This document shows, piece by piece, positions 4,101-64,000 of a stretch of 64,000 bases of DNA. Origin of the DNA: Chamaelirium japonicum (Eukaryota; Streptophyta; Magnoliopsida; Liliales; Melanthiaceae); contig CANTAL010000022.1 of the NCBI GenBank assembly GCA_947650365.1, positions 763,554 to 827,553 on the forward strand. The letters are read 5' to 3'. The first letter of the stretch is position 1; each line of letters opens with the position of its first letter. The notes under the pieces are model-generated. The model was not told where the DNA came from. It was given only the letters and a program-made list of their open reading frames with translations, and did not search any database. A program made the position numbers and the translations under genes.

Positions 4101-7100
4101 ATTGTTCCATATGTGCAAGTTAATTAATGTTAGAAATGTTGTTTCTATAACATAATAATAATTCGAAAATATTGTGTATCATGGACCTACTGGGCCAATG
4201 AAAATATGTCAAAGCTCACACCCCTACAGATGAACATGTTATAGATCTTGGTGGAAGGTCGTTGCGGCTCAGAGTATTTGCGATCTTGCTCCGAGCTTCA
4301 TTTGCTACCGAGGCGGGGAGGACGCTCCGACGTGCTGTGAGCGAGGAACCAAGAGAAAAGCTTAAGCAAAGGAAGGAGTAGGGCGTAAAGACGCGTCGAG
4401 GGACTTCTGGGCTCTCTTGCAATCCGTCTTGCCTATCCGTGGATAGTATAGTGAAGGGAAGGCCATTGGTCTCCCACTCGACTTGCCGGGGATGGTTTTT
4501 TCTGCAAGGGTTTCCACCTAAAATCTCTGTGTACTTTCTATTACCGCATCGAGTAGGACCTTATATGCATCCACTTGTTAGGACTACGAAGAGAGATGAA
4601 AGGTTGAGAGATTGCTTTATTGAATATTCATTGATGATGATTGCTATGTTTATTTTGTGTTCTTTCCATGCATTCGTGATCTATCTTGTTTGATACTGTT
4701 CCTCTAATTTCAATAGAGGAAGTTTTAGCCATCCATCCCTTCTTAGGGTTTGTGTACATTAGCACACCTCATACCCTCGCTAGGGATACACACCCACAAT
4801 TGGAGTAGAGGGATATCATTCGAAAAAAGTAAGACCCAGTCTACGAGCCCTACTTAGAAGCAGAGAATGGTAGGAGGAACCTTGAAGAGGAATTCAAGAA
4901 AAATTTTATAAGTATTTTTATTTTGTTGGAAAAGCGATGTAATGAACCTTTTGGTATTAATAAAATGGCTCTCATTTCATATTATAGAAATATGGAAAGT
5001 GTGGTACTAAGTTGTTCGTTCTAACACCCCAATATTATATGGTTTGAATAAACCTTAAAATATCGGGGCGTTACAGAGGCTAATGGGTTTGAGCTATTAT
5101 ATAATGGTGGATCTGGCCAGTAACTTTTGTCAACCAAATTTCATGTTTTCTTCTCTCTAGTTTGGTGCAAAGTTTTGCAACAACTTACTTCCTGGGATGC
5201 CACAAAACTCCTTGGAGAGATGACTATAAAACAGTAAGGTGCGGCTCAGCTCCTTAGTCCTTACTAAAAGTGTGATGCTTCTAAAAATCATCCCTTCTCT
5301 GTATAGCATTTTAAGTATTGCTTATTTCTTGATTTCAGCTAATTCTCCTAGATCTTAACCTAAACTACTTATTGGGATAATCAATAAGCCTAGATCTACA
5401 AGAAGCCTCCTCTAATCCTTTATATAATCCAGAATTTCTGCTATAAATTTTATTTCAACAAACCCATATTTTGATGTTTTACCCCACAAATCTTAGAAGC
5501 CCATTTTAGAACACAAATATGGGTACTACAACTCAACATATATACATAGTGCTAAATTTATAGTTTATAAGTCAAATTACGAAATCAAAAAATGTATAAT
5601 TCTTGGTTAGTATATGTTCTAATTATGCACCTAAATTCCTGAGCCTTACAATAGAGAGAACAGCATAGGACATCAATAATCATGTCAAGTAAAAATAAAA
5701 TCTTATAGTTGCACAGTATGACTAAAAAAAAAAGCACTTGAAATGAACAGTCTTAGCTTCTAATAAAACCAGAATTTTAATAGGATATCCTCCAAGGCAC
5801 ATAATCTTGAGGAAATGCATGTAATAAATAAAACTTGAATTTCTTCAAAGGGGAGGAATAACGAAAATAGGAAGTTTAGCTATTCTAACTGCTTTACTCA
5901 ATGACATGTCGTCAAAAACATAGAATCTTGAGGTTAGAAAATGCCTATGTTCTATTACTCAAATCCATATATGAAGGTATCAACACATGATTCTTAGAAA
6001 AAAAATATTGAAGTATCATGGTGAAACAACAAGTCATTTATATTCAATTCTTTTTTATAAGAATAATGTGTTGATACATTCATATAATCATATCTGAATT
6101 TGAGTAATAGATACGTAGTCATTTTCTAACCTCAAGATTCTATTTTTTGACGACCAGTAGTTTGGTAAAGCAGTTAGAATAGCTAAACTTCCTATTTTCG
6201 TTATTCCTCCCATTTATTTCCTGCATCCCCTCAAGAATCTGTGTCATGGAGGATGTTCTATCAAAATTCTAGTTTTATTAGAAGCTAAGATTATTTTTTT
6301 CAAGCGTTTTTCTTTTGTTTCTAGCCATACAGTCCAACGATAAGATTTTACTTGACATGATTAATGATGTACTATAAATCCAACAGTAAATTACATGGAC
6401 TTATGTTGCACATGGGAGATATTCTATGCAGGTAACTAAAAAAATTTATAAAAGAAAGTGAATTGAGTTTATATGAATCTACCTTTCTAGCTTTAATAAG
6501 TTTCCTTTCAAGCTCAAGTTTGGCACGCGACTGCCTTCTCCTTAGAATCCCATGGTATTGTTTGGCATTTACATAAACAGGTTCCTCTGTCATTTCGAGA
6601 CGCAAAGGCATGCGGATATGTGGCATTCCAGGTAAGTGAGGATGCACCTGCAACATATGCCACAGAGCGGTAAATTTAATTTCTCACTATTCATAACATC
6701 AAAAGGGGATTATGGAAAGCTGTCCTTTAAGCCCTAGGTATGGGTTTTTTTGTCTTTCTGAGTTAAGACATCTAGATCTCAATAGTTTCTGCAAAGGTAG
6801 ATACAGAAAAAAGGCCTAAAAACATGCTCCCACGGGCCACGGCCGAGCATTACACCACAATCCAGGACCAAATTTTCATGAATATTCTAGGTGTATTTTG
6901 TACACACTAAAAATCTGAAAGCAATCTAAAAATACAGATATCAAGTCATGTCGAATATAAATTTCATCATGAAGGTCCAATGATCATATAACCAACATAC
7001 CGAAGCTAAACATATGGAAAGCAGGATTCATAATGAAAAAAGGAAACATTAATCAACTACCACTGAACAATGTTTTTTGAAGTTGACCAATGTGGCATAC

Positions 7101-8879: not shown

Positions 8880-10970
8880 TGTGATAATGTGGAATTTAAC
8901 TTTCTATAAATTTAATACCTCAACAATTCTCAAGATGGATGATAAGTGAAGAAACTAATAACACATAAGAACACAAGATTTAAGTGGTCGCCTCATAAGC
9001 CTACTCCACCAGAGAGGGAGGGGGAAGAGTTTCATTCATGCGAGACTCCCAATCAGAGCCCCTCAATATAGAAGAATACAACCAGCCTAAATTAGCCAAT
9101 AATTAATCACACATCAGACAATTACAGAGGGTGAAAATATGAATCAATATATGGCCCATTAAAGCTCCCCACATTGGCTCCTCAGTTACATCAATCAAGA
9201 TCCCCATGATTCCTCCTCCTCCAACACTCCACCTCAAGTTGGGGCGAAGATATCAATCGAGCCCAGCTTGGATAAAACAGGTCGAAATTTGGCTAGAGGA
9301 AGATCCTTTGTACAAATATCTAACATTTGTTGATTGCTCTGAACATAGGGTGTACGTACAACTCCGGCTTGAACTTTTTCTCGAACGAAATGGCAATTGA
9401 CTTCTATATGCTTAGTTCTTTCATGAAAGACTGGATTCGAAGCAATGTGAATTGATGCTTGGTTGTCACAAATATGTCAGCTGGATAGAGGAAACAAACC
9501 CCAAATTGTTTAAGAGAGCGCGAAGCCAAAGTACTTCATTGGTCAAACCGTCAAAGATGTTATGACGCAATGTTCTGCCTTAGCACTTGAACGAGTAACA
9601 TTCTATTTCTTGCTTTTCCAAGTACCTAGATTCTCCCCCAACGAATGAGCAGTATCCAGTAGCAGATCGTCGATTAACTAGGCAACTATGCTATTAAGTC
9701 GGGACTAGTCGGCGACTAGTCCCTGGGCGGCATTTTGCCGACCGATTAATTTCGATTCCGTCATTGCTGGGCGGAATCCCGACTAGACCCGACTAGTCCC
9801 CGACTAACGACTGCCGACTAGTCCCCAGACAGTATTCTGCAAGCAATTTTTTTTTTTGAAATGAGTCTTTACAAGCAATTTTGTTTGGATTTTTTAACAT
9901 TAGCTCAAAGTCTTGAGTCGCAAGACTCACAACTATGGTTCTTCCCTGTAATCATCTGTTGAGCACCTGAGAATCTCAGATAAAAATATAGACAAATAAT
10001 TAGTTTATTTGTTGATATCCATATAACCCTATAATCAAAATTGGGATTGTTCACTGATTAAAAATCATCAAACAAATATTGTGATGAATTCTTAGTTTTG
10101 AGTCTTTTGACATGGGCATGAAGCCAATACAACTGTGTTATGTTAGACTGTTACTTATGTATTTATACCCATGCTGTGAAGTGTGAAGGTATGTATTGTT
10201 ATTAACCGACTAATATCATATACTTATCGACATTTATGCTAGTTCATATATCATATATGCTTAGGGAGCCGACTAGTCCCGAATTAGTCCTGACTAGTCC
10301 TAATCGGCCCTTGGCCGACTAGGGCCGACTACCGACTTTGACTGCATAGCTAGGCAACCTACCCAATTTGCATATGTATACCCAACGATGCATGTATGAC
10401 CCACGTTTATGCATCCAGATGCCTTATCCTGGAGATCCCTTTTAAGTATTGGAGAATTTACGCAACATCAGTTATATGGTTAGTTCAAGGAACATAATGT
10501 CTTACCAAACTGACATCATTGGTTATGCCAGGACGAGTGTTGTTGAGGAAAATTAGTCGCTCAACCAAACGTTGAAACTGCCCAATATTAGTAAAGGGTT
10601 TACCATCCAAATTATGTTTACAGATTACAACTATATGTAGGAGTTTCTGAAGTCTTGACTCCAAGCTTGTCTGTTTCTTGTAAAAGATCTAAGACAATTT
10701 TTTTACTTCAAGAAAATCCCTTCTTTTAATAAGCAAATTCTATGTCCATAAAATACTTAAACAATTCCAAGTCTTTGATAGCAAATCGAGTATGGAGTAA
10801 AGTCTTGAGTTTGGCGATGGAGTCTTTATAATCTCCAGTAATGATAATGTCATCAACATAAATTAGGACGTTTGTAGTTCTGAAATCTCTTTTTTTGTGG
10901 ATGAAATCACGGAAATATGATTTCCGCCCAAATTTTCCTCGTTCTTTTGTGGATGAAATCACAAAAAAAT
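8880..10970 (-). mobile_element. Ty1/copia remnant with 3' LTR, interrupted by a hAT element
   Basis: On the minus strand, 10962-10726 gives a copia reverse-transcriptase piece with the YVDD core (LIYVDDIIITG). About 9490-9230 gives the RNase H end ([18 protein letters not shown], then [13 protein letters not shown]). A purine tract is followed by an LTR starting TGTTGGAGGAGG at 9226 and ending near 8880. The element is a broken fossil with many breaks, and its 5' half is missing. The hAT element at 9686-10349 sits inside it. Confidence 0.75.
9686..10349. mobile_element. Non-autonomous hAT element with 8-bp target duplication
   Basis: The flanks carry the perfect 8-bp duplication CTAGGCAA (9678-9685 and 10350-10357). 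Ends are CTATGC...AAGTCGG and the inverse. The interior is rich in GACTAGTC/CCGACTAG motifs near both ends and AT-rich in the middle, with no transposase frame. The 8-bp duplication places it with hAT. Confidence 0.8.
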
Positions 10971-12377
10971 GATTTCTCGGGTGAATTGATTTCCTTGCCT
11001 AGCAAGGATATCGTATCCAAGCTAAACCTATAGAAATTGGGTTTCTCTTCTCATTGTGGAAACCTCGACATCCCAAGGCGAACTTCCCCCGAGACCTTCC
11101 ATAGCCTTTGTCCCCTCTAGTCATCATTCCTAAGACCTCTTAGTCCCCTCTGGCTATCATTCCGACGTGCAGGACCTCGTCAGAATTCTTCATCCCATAA
11201 AACGTTGTTGATTTGGGTTTTTTTATTTTTTTGAAAGTAAGGTAGTGATTTGGGGTTTTGGATTTGTATAGATCATCCACAATGATATATACATATGCGT
11301 TACTGATTTTGGTTTTGGAATTCCTGGGGGTTTCTGGTTTATTTTTTGTGTTTTATTTTAAAACTTTCGGGTTACAAAGTATCAGTTGGTAATAGTGGTT
11401 AACAACTCCCCCTTTCAGAGAAGACCATTTCACCTCTCTGGCAGGTAAAAAACAGCTCCCCTCTTCTTTCCCCCCTTGTGTTTGTCTCCTTCCTTCTCTT
11501 AGTTGTTTTGTTTGGGTACTCTTTTATGTTCAATGCAATAAAATCTTGATGCTGTTTTTGTTGGGTTTTGCAATACCCATGTGGAGTAGTGGGTTGGTCT
11601 TTATAGAGCTCTGATTCACCTCCAACCCTCTTGTAAATCCTTAAGGGTTCAATAGGATTTATGTGTTTGATTTCTTCCCTTAATTTCCCTATTAAAAAGA
11701 ACAGTAGAAATCTATTAGATTTCCACTATGTTTGCTTTATTTCCTTCATTTTCCCGCTAAACGAACAACGGAAATTAAGTGGCGTGGAAAGAATTTATGA
11801 AGATATTGTTTCCTTTATTTTATTTCCCTGGAAACCAAAAGAACGGATCATCCCAAACGGAATCCCTAGTTTTCCCAGCATAATTAAACACAAAAATGGC
11901 TTGATTCCATGGTATAAAGGTACTAAAGTTCAAGAACAAAGGAGAACATATTAAAGTAGAAAAAAATGAGTATCAAACCCAAAGAACGGGCGAATTAACT
12001 TCGGAAATCAAAATTCAAACGCGCACAGGAATCACGAGTGATTCGACAACCCAAAGAACAGGCGAATCAATATCAGTACAAAAAAACAACACTTCAGAAG
12101 TTGAAATCTTAACGCCAACAGAAATTAGGAGTAATTCAACCCAAGATAATTCAAACCAGCACATCTACCCAGCATAAGCACCCTCAGCTTCCACTCCGCA
12201 TCTAATCAAAACCAACACGATTGGCACCTAAAGATACATAATTACAGGCGAATCCAACAGCATCTTATAGAACCGATCAAACAAAAAAAAAAAAAAACAA
12301 GAACAAGTAGAACCCTAATCAATCATCCAGAACAAAAACAACACCCAAAGAAGAGGGGAAAGGGTTTGTGATCTCAC
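10971..12377. other. No gene recognised
   Basis: Pyrimidine-rich stretches at 11400-11520 and AT-rich DNA, with no protein domain. It is probably part of the NF-YA 5'UTR intron if the exon at 12378 is real. Confidence 0.4.
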
Positions 12378-12480: not shown

Positions 12481-12589
12481 GGGCTGATCAAAGCCTCATT
12501 AAAGGGATCATCCGAATACATCTCAGTTCCACTGGGCTTTCAAGAAGGGAACTCGATCTTAGCCCTCTTTCTCCCCCCTTTTCTTTAGG

Positions 12590-12671
12590 ATAAATTACAC
12601 TTTGCCCCCTGAAGTTTTGCTCAAAAAACGCTAAAACCCCCGGTAGTTTATTTTGTTTCAAATCGCACCCT
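12590..12671. repeat. Partial MITE end (Mutator-like 'GGATAAATTACACTTTGCC' family)
   Basis: One terminal arm of the MITE family also seen at 24114, 43236 and 60928. It is cut off and followed by 'gcttgtttggttgctgtg', which looks like the start of a Tourist-type MITE. Confidence 0.65.
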
Positions 12672-12718
12672 AAGAGCTTGTTTGGTTGCTGTGTTTTCAA
12701 CCTATGATTTTAAAAACA

Positions 12719-15700
12719 TCTATATAACATGGCACGGCGGTCTACATGCTGACTAGACAAAACTGAACAACTTGCTGACTAGACAAAAATGGACGGATAG
12801 ATTTGATCATCATCTCTTGATCTAACCATAGAGCGGGGCTCATCCCTTCACTTCTTCACAAGGGAAGTCCCTCAATTAATACAGAATTAATTGGCTCACA
12901 AAGAAGGCAACCCAATCACCCGACGAAAATCACTCTCAAATCTCAATTAATATAAGAATCTTTAGAGTAAATTACACTTTGCCTCCTGAAGTTTAGCTTA
13001 AAAACACTAAACCTCTTTATAAATATAAAACAATATTTTGCCCCCTTCAATTCAGTTTCGATCAGATAAAAATCACCAAACAAGGAAATTATATAGTTGA
13101 CAAAAGGGTGTATTGTGCTAACATTTCAAACTTTAGGGAGCGATTTGGAACAAATCTATATAACAGGGCACGACGGTCTACATGCTGACTAGACAAAACG
13201 GAACAACTTGCTGACTAGACAAAAATGGACGGATAGATTTGATCATCATCTCTTGATCTAACCATAGAGTGGGGCTCATCCCTTCACTTCTTCACAAGAG
13301 AAGTCCCTCAATTAATACAGAATTAATTGGCTCACAAAGAAGGCAACCCAATCACCCGACGAAAATCACTCTCAAAACTCAATTAATATAAGAATCTTTA
13401 GAGTAAATTACACTTTGCCTCCTGAAGTTTAGCTTAAAAACACTAAACCCCTTTATAGATATAAAACAACATTTTGCCCCCTTCAATTCAGTTTCGATCA
13501 GAAAAAAATCACCAAACAAGAAAATTATATAGTTGACAAAAGGGTGTATTGTGCTAACATTTCAAACTTTAGGGAGCGATTTGGAACAAATCTATATAAC
13601 ATGGCACGGCGGTCTACATGCTGACTAGACAAAACGGAGCAACTTGCTGACTAGACAAAAATGGACGGATAGATTTGATCATCATTTCTTTATCTAACTA
13701 TAGAGTGGGGCTCATCCCTTCACTTCTTCACAAGGGAAGTCCCTCAATTAATACAGAATTAATTGGCTCACAAAGAAGGCAACCCAATCACCCGACGAAA
13801 ATCACTCTCAAATCTCAATTAATATAAGAATCTTTAGAGTAAATTACACTTTGCCTCCTGACGTTTAGCTTAAAAACACTAAACCCCTTTATAGATATAA
13901 AACAACATTTTGCCCCCTTCAATTCAGTTTCGATCAGATAAAAATCACCAAACAAGGAAATTATATAGTTGACAAAAGGGTGTATTGTGCTAACATTTCA
14001 AACTTTAGGGAGCGATTTGGAACAAATCTATATAACATGGCACGACGGTCTACATGCTGACTAGACAAAACGGAACAACTTGCTGACTAGACAAAAATGG
14101 ACGGATAGATTTGATCATCATCTCTTGATCTAACCATAGAGCGGGGCTCATCCCTTCACTTCTTCACAAGGGAAGTCCCTCAATTAATACAGAATTAATT
14201 GGCTCACAAAGAAGGCAACCCAATCACCCGACGAAAATCACTCTCAAATCTCAATTAATATAAGAATCTTTAGAGTAAATTACACTTTGCCTCCTGAAGT
14301 TTAGCTTAAAAACACTAAACCCCTTTATAGATATAAAACAATATTTTGCCCCCTTCAATTCAGTTTCGATCAGATAAAAATCACCAAACAAGGAAATTAT
14401 ATAGTTGACAAAAGGGTGTATTGTGCTAACATTTCAAACTTTAGGAAGCGATTTGGAACAAATCTATATAACAGGGCACGACGGTCTACATGCTGACTAG
14501 ACAAAACGGAACAACTTGCTGACTAGACAAAAATGGACGGATAGATTTGATCATCATCTCTTGATCTAACCATAGAGTGGGGCTCATCCCTTCACTTCTT
14601 CACAAGGGAAGTCCCTCAATTAATACAGAATTAATTGGCTCACAAAGAAGGCAACCCAATCACCCGACGAAAATCACTCTCAAATCTCAATTAATATAAG
14701 AATTTTTAGAGTAAATTACACTTTGCCTCCTGAAGTTTAGCTTAAAAACACTAAACCCCTTTATAGATATAAAACAACATTTTGCCCCCTTCAATTCAGT
14801 TTCGATCAGATAAAAATCACCAAACAAGGAAATTATATAGTTGACAAAAGGGTGTATTGTGCTAACATTTCAAACTATAGGGAGCGATTTGGAACAAATT
14901 TATATAACATGGCACGGCGGTCTATATGCTGACTAGACAAAACGGAACAACTTGCTGACTAGACAAAAATGGACGGATAGATTTGATCATCATTTCTTGA
15001 TCTAACTATAGAGTGGGGCTCATCCCTTCACTTCTTCACAAGGGAAGTCCCCCAATTAATACAGAATTAATTGGCTCACAAAGAAGGCAACCCAATCACC
15101 CGACGAAAATCACTCTCAAATCTCAATTAATATAAGAATCTTTAGAATAAATTACACTTTGCCTCCTGACGTTTAGCTTAAAAACACTAAACCCCTTTAT
15201 AGATATAAAACAACATTTTGCCCCCTTCAATTCAGTTTCGATCAGATAAAAATCACCAAACAAGGAAATTATATAGTTGACAAAAGGGTGTATTGTGCTA
15301 ACATTTCAAACTTTAGGGAGCGATTTGGAACAAATCTATATAGCATGGCACGACGGTCTACATGCTGACTAGACAAAACGGAACAACTTGCTGACTAGAC
15401 AAAAATGGACGGATAGATTTGATCATCATCTCTTGATCTAACCATAGAGTGTGGCTCATCCCTTCACTTCTTCGCAAGGGAAGTCCCTCAATTAATACAG
15501 AATTAATTGGCTCACAAAGAAGGCAACCCAATCACCCGACGAAAATCACTCTCAAATCTCAATTAATATAAGAATCTTTAGAGTAAATTACACTTTGCCC
15601 CCTGAAGTTTAGCTTAAAAAACACTAAACCCCTTTATAGCTATAAAACAACATTTTGCCCCCTTCAATTCAGTTTCGATCAGATAAAAATCACCAAACAA

Positions 15701-15771
15701 GAAAATTATATAGTTGACAAAAGGGTGTATTGTGCTAACATTTCAAACTTTAGGGAGCGATTTGGAACAAA
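12719..15771 (+). repeat. Tandem array: 7 units of 436 bp, Helitron-like 5' end fused to a MITE
   Basis: Units start at 12719, 13155, 13591, 14027, 14463, 14899 and 15335, an exact 436-bp period. Each starts A|TCTATATAAC, the same first bases as the Helitron at 21241, then runs about 225 bp into a MITE arm beginning 'gtaaattacactttgcc' and stops at 'ggaacaaa'. Shared variants pair units 2 with 5 (agggcacgacgg), 3 with 6 (cggcgg, ctaactata, ctgacgttt) and 4 with 7, so a 1308-bp trimer appears to have been duplicated. Units differ by only a few bases. The array lies just upstream of the putative NF-YA first exon. Confidence 0.93.
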
Positions 15772-15838
15772 ACAAACTACATGGGAGTTAATGTTTTTTG
15801 AGCAAAACTACAGAGGGGCAAAGTGTAATTTATCCTAA
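15579..15838. mobile_element. Complete MITE closing the tandem array
   Basis: The last array unit runs into a full MITE ending 'gtgtaatttatcc'. Flanks are gaatcttta and taatctttg (7 of 9 alike), a likely 9-bp target duplication pointing to Mutator. This MITE seems to be the source of the MITE half of each array unit. Confidence 0.6.
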
Positions 15839-16019
15839 TCTTTGGGAAATTTTATTCATACCCCAAAAATCTGTAACTAGCCCCCGTTTCCCTATCGTTT
15901 CTCAATAACTTACTCAGCGACCCTTTAATACCAATATCCTTTTCTTTTGTACCCCAAACCTCAAAGCCCTAACTTAGCATCTTTTGTACCCCCAACCCAA
16001 CCCAACCCAACCGAAGGTT

Positions 16020-16227
16020 TGTTTGAACTTCCTTAGCCCTAGCCTAATCCGTCGGGTTGGCCAGGTTGATCAGGTTGTGCTGGATGGGTTGATCGGCTTC
16101 AATATGGTAGAGAAGAAATAATTTGGGTTGGGCTCGGGTTGGGTTCAGGTTAGCCCGCCCAAATTTGGCTTGGGTTCGGGTTGGGCTCGGGTTGGGTTCC
16201 GGTTGGCCCGCCCAAGTTGCAGCCCTA
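16020..16227. repeat. Truncated hAT MITE, GGGTTGG-rich
   Basis: It ends 'gcccgcccaagttgcagccctac', the common hAT end TAGGGCTGCAAC read inverted, and is filled with GGGTTCGGGTTGG-type repeats. No matching left end was found. Confidence 0.45.
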
Positions 16228-16241
16228 CGTCTGCCTTCAAG

Positions 16242-16691
16242 TAGGGGTGGCAATGGGTTGGGTCGGGTCGGGTGAGACATAGGTATAAGGGCAAAACACC
16301 CAACCCGAACCCGACCCGTTTAATAAACGGGTCAAAAACTTAGACCCAAACCCGACCCGTCCCGTTTAACCTGTTTACTAAACGGGTCGGGTCGGGTCGA
16401 GTTGGCTCAACAAAATCCATGTAAACCTATCGGGTTGGGTCAAGACAAGTCGGATTGGGCTGGATTTGATCGGATTGGGTCGGGTTGGCTCGGGTCGGGT
16501 CGGGTTGACACGACCCATTTGGTAAACTGGTCAAGTCGGGCCAATCGGGCTATAAGTACAAACCCGAACCCGGCCCATTAAATAAACGAGTCAATCGGGT
16601 TGACCTTTATATGACCCGAACCCGTTTAGGCCAAATCTAAACCCGCTAACTTTGGGTTGGGTTCGGGTCGGGTCAAGGATTGCCACCCCTA
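16242..16691. mobile_element. hAT MITE, 450 bp, TSD CCTTCAAG
   Basis: Ends TAGGGGTGGCAAT and ATTGCCACCCCTA are perfect inverse copies. The 8-bp duplication CCTTCAAG is at 16234-16241 and 16692-16699. The inside is filled with GGGTCGGGT/ACCCGACCC motifs. It encodes no transposase. Confidence 0.93.
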
Positions 16692-16829
16692 CCTTCAAGT
16701 ACCAGCCAACTGCATGGGGTTTATTTAAGAGTGGGGTGGATTCAAGAGTGCATATAATTAGGGTATATTTAAGGGGGTATGTGTTTGATTGGGGCATAAT
16801 CAAGTTGGAGCGGGCCATTTAACTTTATT

Positions 16830-16928
16830 AGTTTAGGGTCTAGATACGATTAGTTAAACGGGTCGGGTCCGGGTCTAGGGGTTTTGGACATGACCCCGAA
16901 ACTAGACACGACACGATTAGTTAAACGG
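16830..16928. repeat. hAT MITE fragment
   Basis: Phrases such as 'cgattagttaaacgggtc' and 'gggtctaggggttttggacatg' are the same as inside the hAT elements at 19437 and 40768, but no terminal repeats are present. Confidence 0.5.
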
Positions 16929-17140
16929 GTCTCTCTCTCTGCGTGTCTGTGTTTGTGCCCGTGCTAAATGGCTACCAAAACGGCCTGGTGCTTTGGTTAC
17001 CTCACTCACGGCCGGCAGCCTCTCAGCCCACAGCCACCATACCTACCATTTAGGCCCGGCCCATTATGAAAAAAAATAAATATAAAAAGGCCCCATTTAG
17101 AATTTTCGCCTTAGGCCTCAGTTTGTATCGAGACGGCCTT

Positions 17141-17141
<1 letters not shown>

Positions 17142-17226
<85 letters not shown>
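17142..17226. repeat. (CT)n microsatellite, about 85 bp
   Basis: About 42 CT repeats. Open frames of alternating Arg-Glu or Leu-Ser across it are products of the repeat, not genes. Confidence 0.95.
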
Positions 17227-17228
<2 letters not shown>

Positions 17229-17269
17229 GGTAGCGGAGTTGGGGGTTGGTTGGTCGCATCGAAGGCTCC

Positions 17270-17405
17270 CGTTTCGTGCCAATCGGCACGGGCATGCCGA
17301 AGGCAATCAGGTGTGTTGTCGTCGCATAGGACGGTGGGGGTGGTGATCCCTGGGGGGTGTGTTCGGCGGCTCGCTGCAGTGCCGACAGGCACGGGCATGC
17401 ACTAG
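17270..17405 (+). mobile_element. Helitron 3' end
   Basis: Short hairpin GTGCC-gaca-GGCAC (17379-17392), then GGGCATGCACTAG and a T at 17406. This is the CTRR|T terminus of Helitrons. It closely matches the 3' end of the whole Helitron at 21241-22174. No A|TC start was found upstream, so it is truncated or its start is unclear. Confidence 0.65.
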
Positions 17406-17419
17406 TATACAAACAATTC

Positions 17420-17606
17420 AGGGTTGTTTGGTTAGTAGGGTGTGACAAGTGAAAATAGATGCACACTTGCTAAATTTGTACATCATTTGCACATAAAACT
17501 GTGCAAATAAAATTTTACCTAAATACATAAAACTTTAATTGTACATGTCACATGTGCAAATAGATGTACGCGCGCCTTATTTGCACAGCAACCAAACAAC
17601 CCCTAA
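17420..17606. mobile_element. Tourist-like MITE
   Basis: Ends GGGTTGTTTGGTT and AACCAAACAACCCC are inverse copies around an AT-rich core. A clean TAA/TTA duplication is not visible. It abuts a partial Mutator-like MITE. Confidence 0.6.
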
Positions 17607-17776
17607 AGTTTGAAATGTTAGCACAATACCCTCTTTTGTCAATTACTAAATTTTCTCATTTGGTAATTTTTATCTGATCAAAACTAGATTGAAGGGGAAA
17701 AATTGTACTTTTTTAACTATAGAGAGGTTAAGTGTTTTTGAGCTAAACTTTAGAGGGCAAAGTGTAATTTATCTTT
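17607..17776. repeat. Partial Mutator-like MITE
   Basis: It carries the family core ('gaaatgttagcacaatac', 'tttggtaatttttatctgat') and one end, 'gggcaaagtgtaatttatc'. The other end is missing at the junction with the Tourist-like MITE. Confidence 0.6.

Positions 17777-21195: not shown

Positions 21196-21225
<30 letters not shown>
21196..21225. repeat. G30 homopolymer
   Basis: Thirty uninterrupted G just upstream of the Helitron at 21241. The length may be a sequencing estimate. Confidence 0.85.
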
Positions 21226-21240: not shown

Positions 21241-22174
21241 TCTATATAACATGGCACGATGGTCTACAAGCTAAATAGACAAAATGGAACAACAAACTGA
21301 CTAGACAAAAACACACAAGTTGAGTAGACAAAAATGGACCAAATAGATATAACCATTTGTTCAAAAATCAACGCTCGATCTCTATTCCCCCTTCAACCAA
21401 CTACCTCCCCTTATTCTCTTTTTCTATCTATCACCACAATCAATTGCTTCCTTATCTAGTCATCGAAAAATTTTGAAAAAAAAATAAAATATTTTCAAAG
21501 AAAATATCCTATAAATCAGCTGGATGATCCGAAATCCCCTCTTAACTATCTAATTTGGACGCTCGATTCAAAAATCTGTTGATCAAAATAAAAAAACTGT
21601 GAATTGAACCCCAAACATGGGCATCTCAAAATCTGACCATCAATTAACCCCGAGCCCAAGCCCGAGCCCCTGCTCCCCATTGCGAAGAGGAAGAGAAGGA
21701 TGTCGGGTGGAGGAAGGAGAGGGAAAGTTATGACCATATTTTAGAAAATAGAGAGGTGGAGTTTTTTTCTGGCTATAGAAGAAGGAAATATAAATAAAAG
21801 AAAAGAGTATAAAGAGAAAGAAAAGATGAGAAAAAGAGAGAAAAAATTATGACCATATTTTAGTAAAGAGAGAGGTAGTGTTTGTTTTGATTCCCATCGG
21901 GGCGCCCATCGCCACTGTCATCGCCTAAAAACATGAACATTAAGTAACCTTTCGATTTTATTATAAAGTTCATGAGTTCTTGAAGAAAGGAATTTTGTTG
22001 CCCCCCTAATGTGCTTTTCATCAACGGTTGCCGTTGCAATGCTGAAGCCGCAAAAGATGGCCGGGGCTGTGTGACAGGAAGGGGCATACATTTCGCCTCC
22101 CTCTCCGAAGGCGCCATGGTGCGTTGCCACCGAAGGCGGTCGTTTGAGTGCCTGCAGGCACAGGCATGCACTAG
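21241..22174 (+). mobile_element. Non-autonomous Helitron, 934 bp, both ends present
   Basis: It starts TCTATATAACATGG after an A (21240) and ends GCATGCACTAG before a T (22175), the A|TC...CTRR|T signature. Ten bases before CTAG sits the perfect palindrome GTGCCTGCAGGCAC (22148-22161). Near the 5' end the phrase 'ctgactagacaaaa' recurs. No Rep/helicase frame is present, so it would depend on another Helitron. Its first about 120 bp match the start of each 436-bp unit in the array at 12719. Confidence 0.85.
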
Positions 22175-22355
22175 TTAAAAACCATAAGAGGGGATTCCTC
22201 TTTTCCCATGCAAAATAAATGTGAGCCCCTGTGCTTCTCTTCCTATACGCGGTACGGCTACTCGTGGACCACTCCTCTCTCTCCTATCTTCTCACACATG
22301 AATTTTTTTCAACAAATTAGGTATAGGTCATTAACTATTTTGCAGTGTTAGCTGC

Positions 22356-23905: not shown

Positions 23906-25505
23906 TCAAGAAGGCATGAGAGTGTGCCCACTTGAAGTAGGCTCAAATAATTGGTCCACTTCCCAGCTTTGTCTGGGTGCAACCCTGTCATGAAGTGGTG
24001 CATACTCCTGCAAGTAACAGTAAGAAACAACAACATATCATTCCCTTGGCTTTTTCCCTGCACTTGGTTTCTCTCACCAACCCAATAATTCAAGCAACCA
24101 ACCAAAAACTTTAGGGTAAATTACACTTTACCCCCTTGAAGTTCAGCTCAAAATCACTTAGCCCCCCTGAAGGTTTTTTTGGTTCCAATCAGTATAGTTT
24201 GAAATGTTATCACAATACCCCCTTTTGTCACCTAATAAATTTCCTCTTTTGGTAATTTATATCTGATAAAAACTGAATTGAAGAGGGCAAAATGTGGTTT
24301 ATTAAATATAGGGGGGTGGGGGTTAAGAGTTTTTTGGGCTAAACTTCAGGGGGTAAAGTGTAATTTACCCAAAACTTAAAAGGAAAAACAAGATCAGTTA
24401 AGAAATCCATTGGCAATCTTTTCCTCTTCTTCTGGCTAGTTTTTCTCCCCCTTCCCTCCCTCAATTACCTCCATTTTCCTCATCAGCTCATCTGCAGTCC
24501 CTGCTGAGACCACAATGTGCCTTGCTGAGGCCTCTATGAAGCCCTCCTCCACCCCTTTGTCAAACAGGGCAAGCAAGCTGTTGTAGTACCCATCCACATT
24601 CAGTAACCCCACCTGCCCTCCCCCCAATAAAATTTCAGTAAAGGCCAGTCTACGTAAACAAATGAGAGTGAACCCAGGTCACCAATTTCAAAAAAAAATC
24701 TTGGGGTTGGTTAACAAAGGATTAACTCACTGGTTTCTCATGGATCCCAAGCTGAGACCATGCTATGATCTCCAACAGCTCCTCCATGGTTCCATAGCCA
24801 CCTGAAACAGGTTCAGATGATCTAAATGAAAGCTGGTTGATAGGAAAAACTTGGGTGCTGGACCTTGAGAGTTCATGAGTTTGGGACTCACCTGGAAGGG
24901 CAATGAAAGCATCAGCATGCTTAGCCATCTCTGACTTCCTCTCATGCATGTCTGCAACTGTTCTGGACTCTCCAATGGTTTCTCCTGATATCTGCACACA
25001 AGGGGATAGAACAGTGCTGTTACCATACGAGAACAGATCAGAGGGGGAGAGAGGATTGGGGGGGTGGGGGGGGTGAAGCTTCACCTCATGGGGGATGAGA
25101 CCTCTGGGGATAACCCTGTGATGAGAGACAAGGGGAAACGTTTCTCATACAACAGATGCAATTCAAAACAGGGTTATCAGAAACAGACCAGAGAAGGTGT
25201 TACCCAAGGACATGGCAGCCACCATCAAAGACAGTCTGAGAGATCAGACCCATCAAGCCTACACTTCCACCACCATAGACAAGGTCTATTTTTCTCTGAA
25301 CCTGCAAGGGGGGGGGGAGTAAGGCTTTAGGGTTGGTTCACTATAGTAGATGAATAGATGGGGAATTAATAATGCAAAGATCCAAATGTTAGCAAGAGAA
25401 ACAAGAGCAGTATTGTGCTTCACATGAATGTTTAATGCTATCTTCCTTTAAATATCAGAAAAAGAGAGTAAATTGATCTTAATTTGTCACCAATAACCCT
25501 AGAAG

Positions 25506-30277: not shown

Positions 30278-30777
30278 NNNNNNNNNNNNNNNNNNNNNNN
30301 NNNNNNNNNNNNNNNNNNNNNNNNNNNNNNNNNNNNNNNNNNNNNNNNNNNNNNNNNNNNNNNNNNNNNNNNNNNNNNNNNNNNNNNNNNNNNNNNNNNN
30401 NNNNNNNNNNNNNNNNNNNNNNNNNNNNNNNNNNNNNNNNNNNNNNNNNNNNNNNNNNNNNNNNNNNNNNNNNNNNNNNNNNNNNNNNNNNNNNNNNNNN
30501 NNNNNNNNNNNNNNNNNNNNNNNNNNNNNNNNNNNNNNNNNNNNNNNNNNNNNNNNNNNNNNNNNNNNNNNNNNNNNNNNNNNNNNNNNNNNNNNNNNNN
30601 NNNNNNNNNNNNNNNNNNNNNNNNNNNNNNNNNNNNNNNNNNNNNNNNNNNNNNNNNNNNNNNNNNNNNNNNNNNNNNNNNNNNNNNNNNNNNNNNNNNN
30701 NNNNNNNNNNNNNNNNNNNNNNNNNNNNNNNNNNNNNNNNNNNNNNNNNNNNNNNNNNNNNNNNNNNNNNNNNNNNN
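30278..30777. other. Assembly gap, 500 N
   Basis: Exactly 500 N, probably a fixed-size scaffold gap of unknown true length. It falls inside retrotransposon sequence on its left side. The open frame drawn across it is meaningless. Confidence 0.99.
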
Positions 30778-42556: not shown

Positions 42557-43235
42557 TCACATTTTAATGCATGTGGATGAGTATTTCTTTCACTGATTTA
42601 TGTAAAAATTTAAATGTATTTTCTTGTCTTCATATTCTCTAGTTTCATTAGTTTTTGAAAAATCAAAGATAAACCCTTAAACCATCTTAGGCTTTGTTCT
42701 TCTCATCTCTCCTCACTTAAGAAAACGAAGATGACTTCCACTAACTAACATTTGCGTTGCCTTCATTTACTCTCCCTTTTCCTTGTTCTTATGAGAGAAA
42801 AAATTAAGCTAGAAAATTAATTTTGTCAGTTTATTTTCACCCGATTTTTTAAAAAAATGATACTTTCGTTTAAACTAGAGAGAAAATGAAGTAGACCCAT
42901 TGGGAGGAAATAAAGGCCGCAAGTGAATTCATTTCCACCGACTTAAAATGAAAAGAGCAATAGAAACAGAAATAAAGTCAGGAGGTGGATCCATTTCTGC
43001 CGGGACCGTGTCAGTTGTCGTGCAATGGATTGGGCTACGTGGCGAGAGCCACTCGAAGCCGGGGATCGGCATGCCGGCCATTGACCCACACATAACCCCC
43101 ATAAGGAGGCATTGTGATCTCTAAGGGTCACCTCCTCTCATGAAGAGCATATCTCTCGACTCAAATCAAGCTATCGTGTCCATACTGTATAAGGAGATAT
43201 CATCTGGTTGGGCAACTAGGAGGCATATTAGTTTA
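42557..43235. other. No gene recognised
   Basis: AT-rich DNA with short open frames lacking any known domain. Confidence 0.45.
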
Positions 43236-59451: not shown

Positions 59452-59950
59452 TAGGGGTGGCAATAGGTAGGGTCGGGTCGGGTTGAGACATATGTATAAG
59501 GGCAAAACACCCAACCCGAACCCGACCCGTTTAATAAACGGGTCAAAAACTTAAACCCAAACCCGACCCACCTAATAAACGGGTTGACCCGACCCGACCC
59601 GTTTAACCCATTTACTAAACGGGTCGGGTCGTGTCGGGTCGGGTTGGCTCGGGTTGGGTCAACAGAAACCATGTAAACCTGTCGGGTTGGGTAAAGACCA
59701 GTCGGATTGGGCCGGGTTTGATCGGGTTGGGTCGGGTTGGTTCGGGTTGGGTCGGGTCGGGTTGACACGACCCATTTGTTAAACGGGTCAAGTCGGGTCA
59801 ATCGGGTTATAAGTACAAACCCGAACCCGACCCATTAAATAAACGGGTCAATCGGGTCGACCCGTTTATGACCCGAACCCGTTTAGGCCAAACCCAAACC
59901 CGCTAACTTCGGGTCAGGTTGGCGGGTCGGGTCACGAATTGCCACCCCTA
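59452..59950. mobile_element. hAT MITE, 499 bp, TSD GTTATGCA
   Basis: Ends TAGGGGTGGCAAT and ATTGCCACCCCTA. Perfect duplication GTTATGCA at 59444-59451 and 59951-59958. Duplication copy 1 shows the empty site (tttatgca, 55137-55144). Almost the same sequence as the MITE at 63120 and close to that at 16242. Confidence 0.95.
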
Positions 59951-60303: not shown

Positions 60304-61674
60304 GCCCCCACTTTCCCCTAGGGTTAGGGTTTCCTTCTGGCCTTGCTCTCGGCCTCCTCGGTCTCCGTTGGCGGATCCGGAGAGGTCGGGAGGTGGATCC
60401 ACACAGCCTGGGGGGTAGGATTCGGCCCCTTTCCTTTCCCCCTGTGAATAGGGGCTACTCCGGCGGTCGGTGATTCTGTGTTCGTCGCACCGAAGTCATG
60501 GCTTCCCCCCTGCGGTCGGTTGACGGACGTCCCTTGCTCGGCACCGGGGTCCGTTTTCCCGTCGAGGGATGCGGGATGGCCGGGTTCTGACCTCGGTGTG
60601 AGCAGTGGCGGACCCAGGAATTCACTCTTGTGGGGACATAAATTCTAATATAGAGATATAAAGAGTGGGTTTTGGCATACATCTTGTCTTTTTTTTGTTG
60701 TTGTTGGGTGGGGGGGGGGGGGGGGACTCGGCTAATCGCCTGGCCGGGGGTAAGGAACAGGCCACCATCTCCGACCATGAGTTTTGGACAGAAAAGACAT
60801 GCATGAACGAAGGTCCGATGATCCGAGAATGACCGTACGATGCAACTTGTGTGCGAGACTGCGATCTGCGAGCACTACAAACCTGCGAGGTGCGGATGTG
60901 AGACAAAAGAGATGAATTAGTTTTTTATGTAAAATTACACTTTACCCCCTGAAGTTTAGCTAAAAAACATTTAACCCCCCTGTAGTTTATTTTGTTCCAA
61001 ATTGCTCCCTAAAGTTTGAAAATTTTAGCACAACACTCCTTTTCAACAACTCAATTTCCTCATTTGGTGATTTTTATCTAATCAAAACAGAAATGAATGG
61101 GGTAAAATGTAACTCTTTAACTATAGGGTGGTTATGTGTTTTTGAGCTAAAGTTCATGGGACGCAAGTGTAATTTACCCTCTTTGAAATCTTAGTGGGGG
61201 CATGTACTTGCCCCCACTGGCCCTTAGTTGGCTCCGCCAATGGGTGTGAGGTTCTTCGCCGGTGGCTTTTCAGGATACCTCCTCGGCTCAATGGGCGGTC
61301 TCTTGGCGGATGGTGGCGGTCGATGGCGGAGAGACGGTGGTTGCAACTCTGATCTAAAGGTGCCGATCTGCTAGAGATGGCGATGGGTCGCCAATTTTGG
61401 TTTGTTTTTTTAGCCCGTGTCTCTTGGGTTTTTAGCAGATGGACCATGATGTATATAGCGCCAATGGTGGCGCCCTCCCTCTTTGCCGTGATCTATGTTC
61501 CACCGCCTAGTGACGGTCTCTGTAGGTGTGCCAGTAGTGGCACTTCTGTCTGTATCCCCGCCAGGCGGCGATCGTCTTCCCCCACCTAGTGGTGGTTTTC
61601 CTATGCAGCTCCGGCATGTGGCGCGTCCTAGAGGTCCGTTTGTGACCGCCCCTCATAAATATACCAAAAAAAAA
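60304..61674 (+). mobile_element. A-tailed retroposon family, copy 3, with nested MITE
   Basis: Likely 12-bp duplication acaaactaacaa (60292-60303) and acaaacaaacaa (61675-61686), 11 of 12 alike. It starts in 'gcccccactttcccctaggg', has 'cccctgtgaataggggctac', 'tgtgttcgtcgcaccg' and ends 'cctagaggtccgtttgtgacc...ataccaaaaaaaaa'. Duplication copy 1 has the uninterrupted site near 55345-55375. No protein domain. Contains a MITE at 60928 and a G16 run (60710-60725). Confidence 0.65.
60928..61179. mobile_element. Mutator-like MITE inside retroposon copy 3
   Basis: Ends 'gtaaaattacactttaccc' and 'gcaagtgtaatttaccc' with the family core 'cctcatttggtgatttttatc'. No clean target duplication. Confidence 0.75.
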
Positions 61675-63119: not shown

Positions 63120-63638
63120 TAGGGGTGGCAATGGGTTGGGTCGGATCGGGTTCGGGTCGGGTTGAGACATATGTATAAGGGCAAAACACCCAACCCGAAC
63201 CCGACCCGTTTAATAAACGGGTCAAAAACTTAAACCCAAACCCAACCCGCCTAATAAACGGGTTGACCCGACCCGACCCGTTTAACCCGTTTACTAAATG
63301 GGTCGGGTCGTGTCGGATCGGGTTGGGTCAACAGAACCCATGTAAATCTGTCGGGTTGGGTAAAGACCAGTCGGATTGGGCCGGGTTTGATCGGGTTGGC
63401 TCGGGTTGGTTCAGGTTGGCTTGGGTCGGGTCGGGTCGGGTTGACACGATCCATTTGTTAAACGGGTCAAGTCGGGTTATAAGTACAAACCCGAACCCGA
63501 CCCATTAAATAAACGGGTCAATCGGGTCGACCCGTTTATGACCCGAACCCGTTTAGGCCAAACCCAAACCCGCTAACTTCGGGTCGGGTTCGGGTTCGGG
63601 TTCGGGTCGGCGGGTCGGGTCAAGAATTGCCACCCCTA
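63120..63638. mobile_element. hAT MITE, 519 bp, nearly identical to that at 59452
   Basis: Ends TAGGGGTGGCAAT and ATTGCCACCCCTA. Flanks ccagcggt and caggcggt match at 6 of 8. Long stretches equal the 59452 element base for base, which suggests recent spread of the family. Confidence 0.9.
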
Positions 63639-64000
63639 CAGGCGGTCCTAGCTGACACACCCTTCAATGATTACTTGCCACACTAGCAACGTCCTAGAGA
63701 TCATGGCGGTTGTCCTCATCCCACGCTTTATGCCACGCCAGTCATCGTCGACGATCATGGAGCTCAGCCTAATCAAGGGAAGAGATAGTGGAGACCAATG
63801 TGGCGTAGATGGTCAGAAAAGAGCCATAGGTTATGTCTGCCTATTATACTACAAATCATCAATGCACTATGTTTACAGGATCATTTTACCTGAACCCTAT
63901 TGCTGGTTCGTGGCATGACGTAGTGTTGAGCTGCTCCATTTAGCTCCATGGCTTGATTGCCCAGTCAGACAAGCCTTAGAAGGCTTTATGGTCTTACTTG
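63639..64000. other. No gene recognised
   Basis: An 83-residue frame (63667-63918) shows no known domain. Sequence runs off the window. Confidence 0.35.

What the first reader, a model, noticed from the sequence alone, without database searches (positions are those of the whole stretch)
12719..15771. Exact 436-bp tandem array of Helitron 5' end plus MITE, with a three-unit higher order
Seven units keep an exact 436-bp spacing. Each opens at A|TCTATATAAC, the start of the Helitron at 21241, and fuses it to a MITE. Shared variants pair units 2/5, 3/6 and 4/7, so a 1308-bp trimer was itself duplicated. This satellite-like growth from two transposons could come from rolling-circle read-through of a Helitron followed by unequal exchange. 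It lies directly upstream of the putative NF-YA first exon.
Basis: partly seen in the sequence, partly recalled or inferred. Interest (0 to 1): 0.85.

Follow-up and report, generated by a model that had tools for sequence, protein, structure and literature searches.

The report
Truncated-Helitron tandem array in a plant
Seven head-to-tail copies of the front part of a jumping gene sit inside one copy of it; this is a clear example of a process already described for plant Helitrons, with good traces of how it starts and spreads.

Summary
The array is real: seven units at an exact 436-bp step, 12719-15771. It is the 5' part of one non-autonomous Helitron (12719-17405; TC...hairpin...CTAG) inserted A|T in a Tourist-like MITE that itself interrupts an older MITE. 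The MITE in the unit is not a new fusion: it is a passenger of a dispersed Helitron family in this 1.52-Gb genome. Unit 7 runs on into the intact MITE, the Helitron body and a single 3' end. The higher-order pairs are 1/4, 2/5 and 3/6, not 4/7. The junction GGAACAAA|TCTATATAAC was found 7 times genome-wide: 6 here and once on contig C18, in a short Helitron carrying a dimer related to the last unit types, so the tandem form has moved. Five further places show other truncation points joined to TC. Best reading: Helitron-driven, 5'-anchored partial duplication, then unequal exchange; the class 'multiple 5' ends, single 3' end' credited to Xiong et al. 2016. New member of a known kind. The further places were found through 5' ends, so the anchoring still needs an unbiased census.

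The parts
12719..17405 (+). Helitron 1, non-autonomous, TC ... hairpin ... CTAG, inserted A|T with no target duplication; 4687 bp including the array
   Evidence: 3' end homologous to the Helitron at 21241-22174; terminal pattern (up to 3 mismatches) only at 17379-17406 and 22148-22175, 0 expected; flanks joined
12719..13154 (+). unit 1 (436 bp)
13155..13590 (+). unit 2
13591..14026 (+). unit 3
14027..14462 (+). unit 4 (pairs with 1)
14463..14898 (+). unit 5 (pairs with 2)
14899..15334 (+). unit 6 (pairs with 3)
15335..15771 (+). unit 7, continuous with the rest of the Helitron; most divergent; C at col 306 like all family copies compared and C at col 266 like most of them (L009 has T there as units 1-6 do)
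15580..15836 (+). intact resident MITE (MITE-A'), flanked by direct repeats AATCTTT (15573-15579, 15837-15843); the units end inside it
   Evidence: aligned with copies at 43232, 24106, 60921; same flanks in family copies
16242..16691 (+). second resident MITE (MITE-D), 8-bp direct repeat CCTTCAAG
   Evidence: relatives at 59452-59950 and 63120-63639
17276..17289 (+). inner hairpin GTGCC-AATC-GGCAC like the 3' end but without CTAG after it; also in L018, L011 and L009 with small changes
17379..17405 (+). terminal hairpin GTGCC-GACA-GGCAC and CTAG 3' end
12674..12718 (+). left part of the Tourist-like MITE-B, the Helitron's target; TAA at 12671-12673
17406..17603 (+). right part of MITE-B; TAA at 17604-17606
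12585..12673 (-). outer part of the older MITE-A that hosts MITE-B
   Evidence: joined copy aligns without a break to 15838-15584 at 85%
17607..17776 (-). rest of the older MITE-A
21241..22174 (+). Helitron 2, 934 bp, single copy, relative sharing both ends

Best explanation
The array is a truncated-Helitron tandem. A member of a non-autonomous Helitron family, already carrying two resident MITEs, lies A|T in a Tourist-like MITE (shown). Its 5' segment (bases 1-436, ending at no known terminator) was duplicated head to tail so that each copy starts at the Helitron's 5' TC and joins the TC of the next (structure shown). The likeliest cause is a rolling-circle transposase of the Helitron type: it nicks at the 5' TC, copying starts, stops early, and the unfinished 3' end is joined to the TC held by the enzyme (inferred). 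The first duplication grew by unequal exchange between the direct repeats, and units 1-3 were later duplicated as 4-6 (pairing shown, exchange inferred). A Helitron carrying two of the unit types stands on another contig, so a tandem form has been mobile (shown; direction inferred from the tree).
For: Left edge at A|TC with 1-bp ambiguity and no other microhomology. Unit 7 flows into the intact MITE, body and the single 3' end. The array junction, up to 2 mismatches, was found 7 times in 1.52 Gb, 6 here and 1 at C18:3020979, control 0. Recurrence with other truncation points joined to TC: 394 bp (L070), 102 bp (L084/L085), 572 bp (L089), about 1240 and 1396 bp sharing one junction (L081/L082), and 124 bp in a related subfamily (L088); the leftmost TC in these five places is preceded by A. 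Truncated units are closest to the Helitron directly downstream for C4_394, C2_572 and the window (U4 against U7); the 102-bp one ties; the 124-bp and both C8:16.5-Mb units had no eligible comparison; the set was 42 fetched loci. Among the first 100 exact 5' ends by position on C1 there are 13 same-strand neighbouring pairs within 3 kb and 0 opposite-strand ones; 0.37 expected for each; five of these are whole head-to-tail elements, see full report. Published: Helraiser needs its 5' end, not strictly its 3' end, and truncated products occur (PMC4778049, abstract and passages).
Against: The further cases were found by searching for 5' ends, so duplications starting elsewhere are under-counted, and no unbiased control was obtained (the internal probe was too specific; a body probe did not complete). 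In 42 loci, 3 places had 5'-anchored duplications and 1 of these also carried internal ones of 76 and 155 bp. The array at C1:7.25 Mb has four 5' ends and one 3' end, but its repeated sequence begins upstream of the first TC. One 185-bp case has G, not A, before its leftmost TC (L090). The 102-bp case has a 4-bp TCTA match at its breakpoint, which allows slippage. The 572-bp junction has two bases (AC) before TC that do not align with L018. The tree does not resolve unit 7 as sister to units 1-6: copies L009 and L014 fall in the same cluster, though holding the array units together is not rejected (p-AU 0.997). No transposase, circle or intermediate was observed; the search for the Rep domain (PF14214) did not complete.
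Confidence: 0.65

Rival explanations
1. Terminator-less circle (as a review describes the model of Xiong et al. 2016): recombination removes the 3' terminator from a Helitron circle, rolling-circle copying makes a concatemer of 5' parts, and this integrates as a new insertion. It too is Helitron-driven, so its odds overlap with those of the best explanation.
For: Many 5' ends and one 3' end, several to several hundred repeats, is the published pattern (PMC12628747 passage). Exact equal spacing fits a concatemer. The C18 copy shows that a tandem form can sit at a new site.
Against: The last unit is continuous with a whole Helitron body and 3' end, which a terminator-less circle alone does not give. 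Five further places have other truncation points, four of them with only one truncated unit in the stretch seen, which better fits single local events.
Confidence: 0.25
2. A Helitron inserted into an internal A|T site of another copy; later recombination between the two 3' parts removed one of them, leaving two 5' parts and one 3' end.
For: Insertion of one Helitron against another seems common here: the precise junction GGCATGCACTAG|TCTATATAACATGG occurs 785 times with up to 3 mismatches, control 0, and in 27 of 30 fetched loci no stretch of 100 bp or more at 90% identity was seen between the two sides (1.5 kb a side, first four hits per locus). The 102-bp breakpoint is a natural A|T: the next base is T in 13 of 13 copies compared.
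Against: The natural sequence at other breakpoints is not A|T: GTTGACA|AAAGG in 12 of 13 copies, ACCGGG|TTGGG in 9 of 9, and at the window breakpoint GGAACAAA|A in 13 of 13, with an A|T one base further on in most. Copy L011 does read AAA|TTAAAC. The natural sequence at the 572- and 124-bp breakpoints was not examined in this way.
Confidence: 0.12
3. An ordinary tandem duplication (end joining or replication slippage) whose left break fell on TC by chance, followed by unequal exchange.
For: Breakpoint homology is 1 bp, which suits end joining. The family also carries internal duplications of 76 and 155 bp that do not start at TC.
Against: The same left edge in five further places with other truncation points, although those were found through 5' ends.
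Confidence: 0.15
4. Assembly artefact.
For: The assembly has gaps (500 N at 30278-30777) and long repeats are error-prone.
Against: Units differ at 29 alignment columns with a structured pattern, and the junction is also found on another contig.
Confidence: 0.03

Closest known systems
[quoted passage not shown] not held, known here only through passages in PMC12628747, PMC6591975, PMC10095026 and PMC5148889)
   Same: Several 5' ends in tandem, a single 3' end, truncated units, several copies.
   Different: Here the unit ends inside a resident MITE, the copy lies 5' of an NF-YA-like gene on a 2.08-Mb contig of unknown chromosomal place, and a three-unit higher order and a dimer at a second site are seen.
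Helitron/Helentron elements with central satellite-like repeats (PMC12628747 passages)
   Same: Tandem repeats carried inside a Helitron and able to move with it.
   Different: Those repeats are in the middle of the element; here the repeat includes the 5' terminus itself.
Mothra Helitrons of rice (PMC4683698, part of abstract and passages)
   Same: Non-autonomous Helitron with blocks of direct repeats that change number, ascribed by the authors to slippage or unequal crossing-over.
   Different: Mothra's first repeat block starts about position 80 and is a family feature; here the repeat includes position 1 and was found in one copy and one derivative.
Helitrons of Fusarium and other fungi (PMC5148889, passages)
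   Same: A copy inserted 2 bp upstream of another's 5' end; copies with several 5' termini; three copies in tandem in Metarhizium acridum, for which the authors weigh repeated insertion against rolling-circle replication.
   Different: Non-canonical Helitron2 type; no seven-unit equal-spaced array in the passages seen.

Membership tests
Helitron (canonical) | 5' TC | tested here: met
   TC at 12719 and 21241
Helitron (canonical) | 3' CTRR preceded by a hairpin | tested here: met
   GTGCC-GACA-GGCAC, 9 nt, CTAG at 17402-17405; the fold is not stronger than shuffles (z -0.11), so it rests on the conserved stem
Helitron (canonical) | insertion between A and T, no target duplication | tested here: met
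   ACA^TATAC at the joined flanks; A before TC in 27 of 30 family 5' ends, the other three being one 3'-end CTAG, one 3'-end-like CTAT and one truncated-unit junction
Helitron (canonical) | Rep-helicase protein in an autonomous partner | not tested
   The search for PF14214 in the genome did not complete
Truncated-Helitron tandem arrays (Xiong class) | multiple 5' ends, single 3' end | tested here: met
   seven 5' ends at 12719-15335 and one 3' end at 17405
Truncated-Helitron tandem arrays (Xiong class) | accumulation in centromeres | not testable with these tools
   the window lies on contig C34 of 2,083,030 bases, chromosomal place unknown
Truncated-Helitron tandem arrays (Xiong class) | made by rolling-circle copying | not testable with these tools
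   needs circles or intermediates
Tourist-like (PIF/Harbinger) MITE for MITE-B | 3-bp TAA target duplication and matching terminal inverted repeats | tested here: met
   TAA at 12671 and 17604; GAGCTTGTTTGGTTGCTGTG against GGGGTTGTTTGGTTGCTGTG; the family name is recalled and no second copy of MITE-B was compared
   no exclusive shared variant, 5% bootstrap

The most novel reading that the evidence does not exclude
In this Helitron family, aborted rolling-circle starts leave a scar in place: the host A primes copying of the first n bases, and the transposase then joins the TC it still holds to the unfinished 3' end, giving host A-[1..n]-[whole Helitron]-T with n arbitrary. Each such scar adds a working 5' end, and an inner 5' end can launch a new copy: the C18 Helitron (dimer of unit types c and 7) would have left an array of at least four units by starting at the next-to-last unit.
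Probability: 0.35. Interest if true: 0.6.

Novelty: new member of a known kind. Interest (0 to 1): 0.42.

Why it matters
Where satellite DNA comes from is an old question. Here several steps can be read in one genome: single Helitrons, one-step duplications joined to the 5' TC with different end points, a seven-unit array with a trimer higher order, and a dimer at a second site. Together they make the in-place abortive-copying idea testable by a census of breakpoints and by alleles. The single locus is not unusual for plant Helitrons.

Tried and rejected
A cryptic terminator at the truncation point: the strand around it folds no better than shuffles (z -0.05), and no CTRR stands at the break. 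The block 12585-15838 as one MITE with an internal satellite: rejected, because the outer MITE continues at 17607 and the inner MITE has its own AATCTTT direct repeats. Full-length head-to-tail junctions as proof of concatemers: not accepted, most neighbours examined differ. The internal 40-mer control was too subfamily-specific (21 hits). The 3'-end probe (2886 hits with up to 2 mismatches, control 0) shows 1 close same-strand pair among the 100 places listed (C1:32729339/32730342, read off the listing); its list samples a different fraction of copies than the 5' list, so I do not use it as a control. Never answered by the busy server: the count of CTAGTCTATATAACATGG, a body probe, and PF14214. 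Of the 13 close pairs, 11 were examined: five whole head-to-tail junctions (C1:9445190 seen only as the junction locus L028, the other four with both elements), one truncated tandem (L090), three in the C1:7.25-Mb array, two unclear (L093, L095); two were not fetched.

Full report
OBSERVATION. TRF reports 12718-15771, period 436, 7.0 copies, 97% matches, score 5840. Cut at each TC, six units are 436 bp and the seventh 437 bp; the units differ at 29 columns, 5 to 15 differences per pair. The first 71 bp of unit 4 match the Helitron at 21241 at 88.7%, and the 5' 18-mer occurs eight times in the window against 0.07 expected.

HIGHER ORDER. Eight columns are parsimony-informative: 2/5 (col 12), 3/6 (cols 96, 109, 272), 1/4 (cols 116, 317), 2/7 (col 368), and col 19 dividing 1,3,6 from 2,4,5,7. 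Mean differences by offset 1 to 6 are 10.5, 9.6, 6.75, 11.7, 11.0 and 13.0; the offset-3 sum is reached by 1.3% of unit orders, and the best-of-four-offsets statistic by 2.2%. Bootstraps: 3/6 98, 1/4 71, 2/5 48, 2/7 44, 4/7 5. In a tree with 34 family copies and the two C18 units: 3/6 98/85, 2/5 96/83, 1/4 87/70, U1-6 with C18A 91/90, U7 with C18B 94/92, C18A with U3/U6 96/77. So units 1-3 were repeated as 4-6 and unit 7 lies outside.

WHERE IT SITS. The 3' end of the Helitron at 21241-22174 has a homologue at 17365-17417; the pattern GTGCC-N4-GGCAC-N-GGCATGCACTAGT occurs at these two places only, 0 expected. The array is therefore the 5' part of Helitron 1, 12719-17405. Removing it joins ...TTTTAAAAACA^TATACAAAC..., A|T. 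That sequence lies in a Tourist-like MITE with TAA at 12671 and 17604 and matching ends; no second copy of this MITE was compared. Removing this MITE joins 12673 to 17607, and the joined sequence aligns without a break to the MITE at 15838-15584 (85%) and to copies at 60921, 43478 and 24109. Unit 7 continues into the right half of another MITE of that family, 15580-15836, flanked by AATCTTT, then Helitron body holding a further MITE (16242-16691, CCTTCAAG repeats), then an inner hairpin without CTAG and the terminal one.

THE FAMILY. In the window's own genome (G000, 1,518,659,071 bases; window at C34:763554-827553) the unit gave 4102 first-look candidates, of which 40 were scored; apart from the array and C18 the full-length matches are dispersed copies at 93-96%. 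The twelve fetched copies L009-L020 carry the MITE and at least the first part of the body (the output of 42 was cut). Of twelve copies examined for the MITE's flanks, 7 have AATCTTT on both sides, 3 have a changed base on the right, and 2 gave no match in the script. The Helitron-MITE combination is thus older than the array. The 40-base 5' end occurs 331 times (up to 2 mismatches, control 0), the 14-base end 2540 times exactly (control 7), the 35-base 3' end 2886 times (up to 2 mismatches, control 0).

THE JUNCTION. GATTTGGAACAAATCTATATAACA with up to 2 mismatches was found 7 times: 6 here and C18:3020979 on the minus strand; control 0. The C18 element is an 848-bp Helitron: a 436-bp unit (position 2 reads A, in a TA-repeat flank), a second unit cut at base 297, and a 3' end 98.3% identical over 118 bp to 17292-17409, with CTAG. 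Unit B shares with U7 col 118 T, 140 G, 266 C, the extra A and col 19 A; unit A shares with U1-6 col 266 T and 306 A, and with U3/U6 col 272 C. Col 266 T is not exclusive: L009 has it too. The dimer junction has therefore moved to, or from, a second site. If the tree is right (C18A inside the U1-6 group beside U3/U6), at least four units existed before the split and the copy began at the next-to-last unit; support is moderate.

RECURRENCE. Among the 100 places listed (of 331) four close same-strand pairs outside the window stand out (102, 124, 394, 572 bp), and L081/L082 show a further array. Their junctions: CTCTTGA|TC, TTGCAAA|TC, GTTGACA|TC, CTATCGAC|TC, and ACCGGG|TC twice; the leftmost TC in the five places is preceded by A. 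The downstream Helitron is the closest relative of the truncated unit for C4_394 (98.2 against 97.7%), C2_572 (98.5 against 97.5%) and the window (U4 and U7, 97.7% against 96.8% and 96.6%); the 102-bp unit ties, and three comparisons had no eligible rival. The comparison set is only 42 fetched loci.

COUNTER-EVIDENCE. The cases were found through 5' ends. In 42 loci, 5'-anchored duplications occur at 3 places, and 1 of these also has internal ones. The C1:7.25-Mb array has four 5' ends and one 3' end but its repeated sequence begins upstream of the first TC. L090 has G before its first TC and its two units are only 90% alike. The 102-bp breakpoint has a 4-bp TCTA match, and the 572-bp junction carries two bases that do not align with L018.

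HEAD-TO-TAIL WHOLE ELEMENTS. GGCATGCACTAG|TCTATATAACATGG occurs 785 times (404 + 381, up to 3 mismatches, control 0). Of 30 fetched, 3 (L029, L041, L053) show 100 bp or more at 90% identity between the two sides; 1.5 kb a side and the first four hits per locus were looked at, and L029 and L030 overlap. L030 holds four 5' ends in a row with three CTAG-type junctions; its best neighbour matches run from 75 to 89%, with one stretch of 127 bp at 93%. These look like insertions of one Helitron into the A|TC boundary of another, a different process from the truncated tandems. Five of the 13 close 5'-end pairs on C1 are of this kind, so the clustering is not all truncated tandems.

MECHANISM. Shown: left edge at TC, varied right edges, single 3' end, a dimer at a second site, a duplicated trimer. 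Inferred: Rep-type nicking at TC, early stop, joining of the held TC to the unfinished end, and unequal exchange. Helraiser work supports the chemistry: a model with a 5'-phosphotyrosine intermediate, a required 5' end, a 3' end not strictly necessary, truncated products, circles (PMC4778049, abstract and passages). Plant arrays with several 5' ends and one 3' end are credited to Xiong et al. 2016 by a review (PMC12628747, passages) and by PMC6591975 (passages); the original was not held. Searches (listing 25 of 78, 13 of 13, 12 of 12, 15 of 34, 2 of 2 and 7 of 7 papers) showed none that, by title and abstract start, describes this locus or a family-wide set of in-place 5'-anchored duplications; only passages of eight papers were seen.

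GENE CONTEXT. PF02045 (NF-YA) lies on the minus strand near 6483-6584; the array is upstream of that gene. A first exon next to the array is not shown.

Noticed in passing
L028-L057; genome-wide: 785 precise Helitron 3'-end|5'-end junctions (up to 3 mismatches); most neighbours examined are not near-identical, suggesting that the A|TC boundary of a resident Helitron is a favoured target.
   Followed up: partly
17276-17289 and 17379-17405: Two 3'-like hairpins 103 bp apart in Helitron 1, the inner one lacking CTAG; both also in family copy L018 (the held L009 and L011 stretches end at or just past the inner one), as if an old end had been bypassed and a new one gained.
   Followed up: partly
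L004, L014, L017 (also L011, L012): Copies whose 5' end runs into a TA repeat and reads TATATATAAC in place of TCTATATAAC; L011 and L012 show the same change without a long TA repeat.
   Followed up: no
C1:7247000-7254400 (L098, L092, L097): Another array with four 5' ends and one 3' end, units of about 470-594 bp, repeated sequence starting upstream of the first TC.
   Followed up: partly
9237-11000: ORF pieces that look by eye like Copia-type reverse transcriptase/RNase H between presumed NF-YA exons; the one piece sent to Pfam (9237-9476) gave only a weak unrelated hit.
   Followed up: no
24725-25144, minus strand: Lysine_decarbox (PF03641) exon, LOG-like by recall.
   Followed up: no
30278-30777: Run of exactly 500 N, an assembly gap.
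   Followed up: no
21196-21225: Thirty G in a row just upstream of Helitron 2.
   Followed up: no
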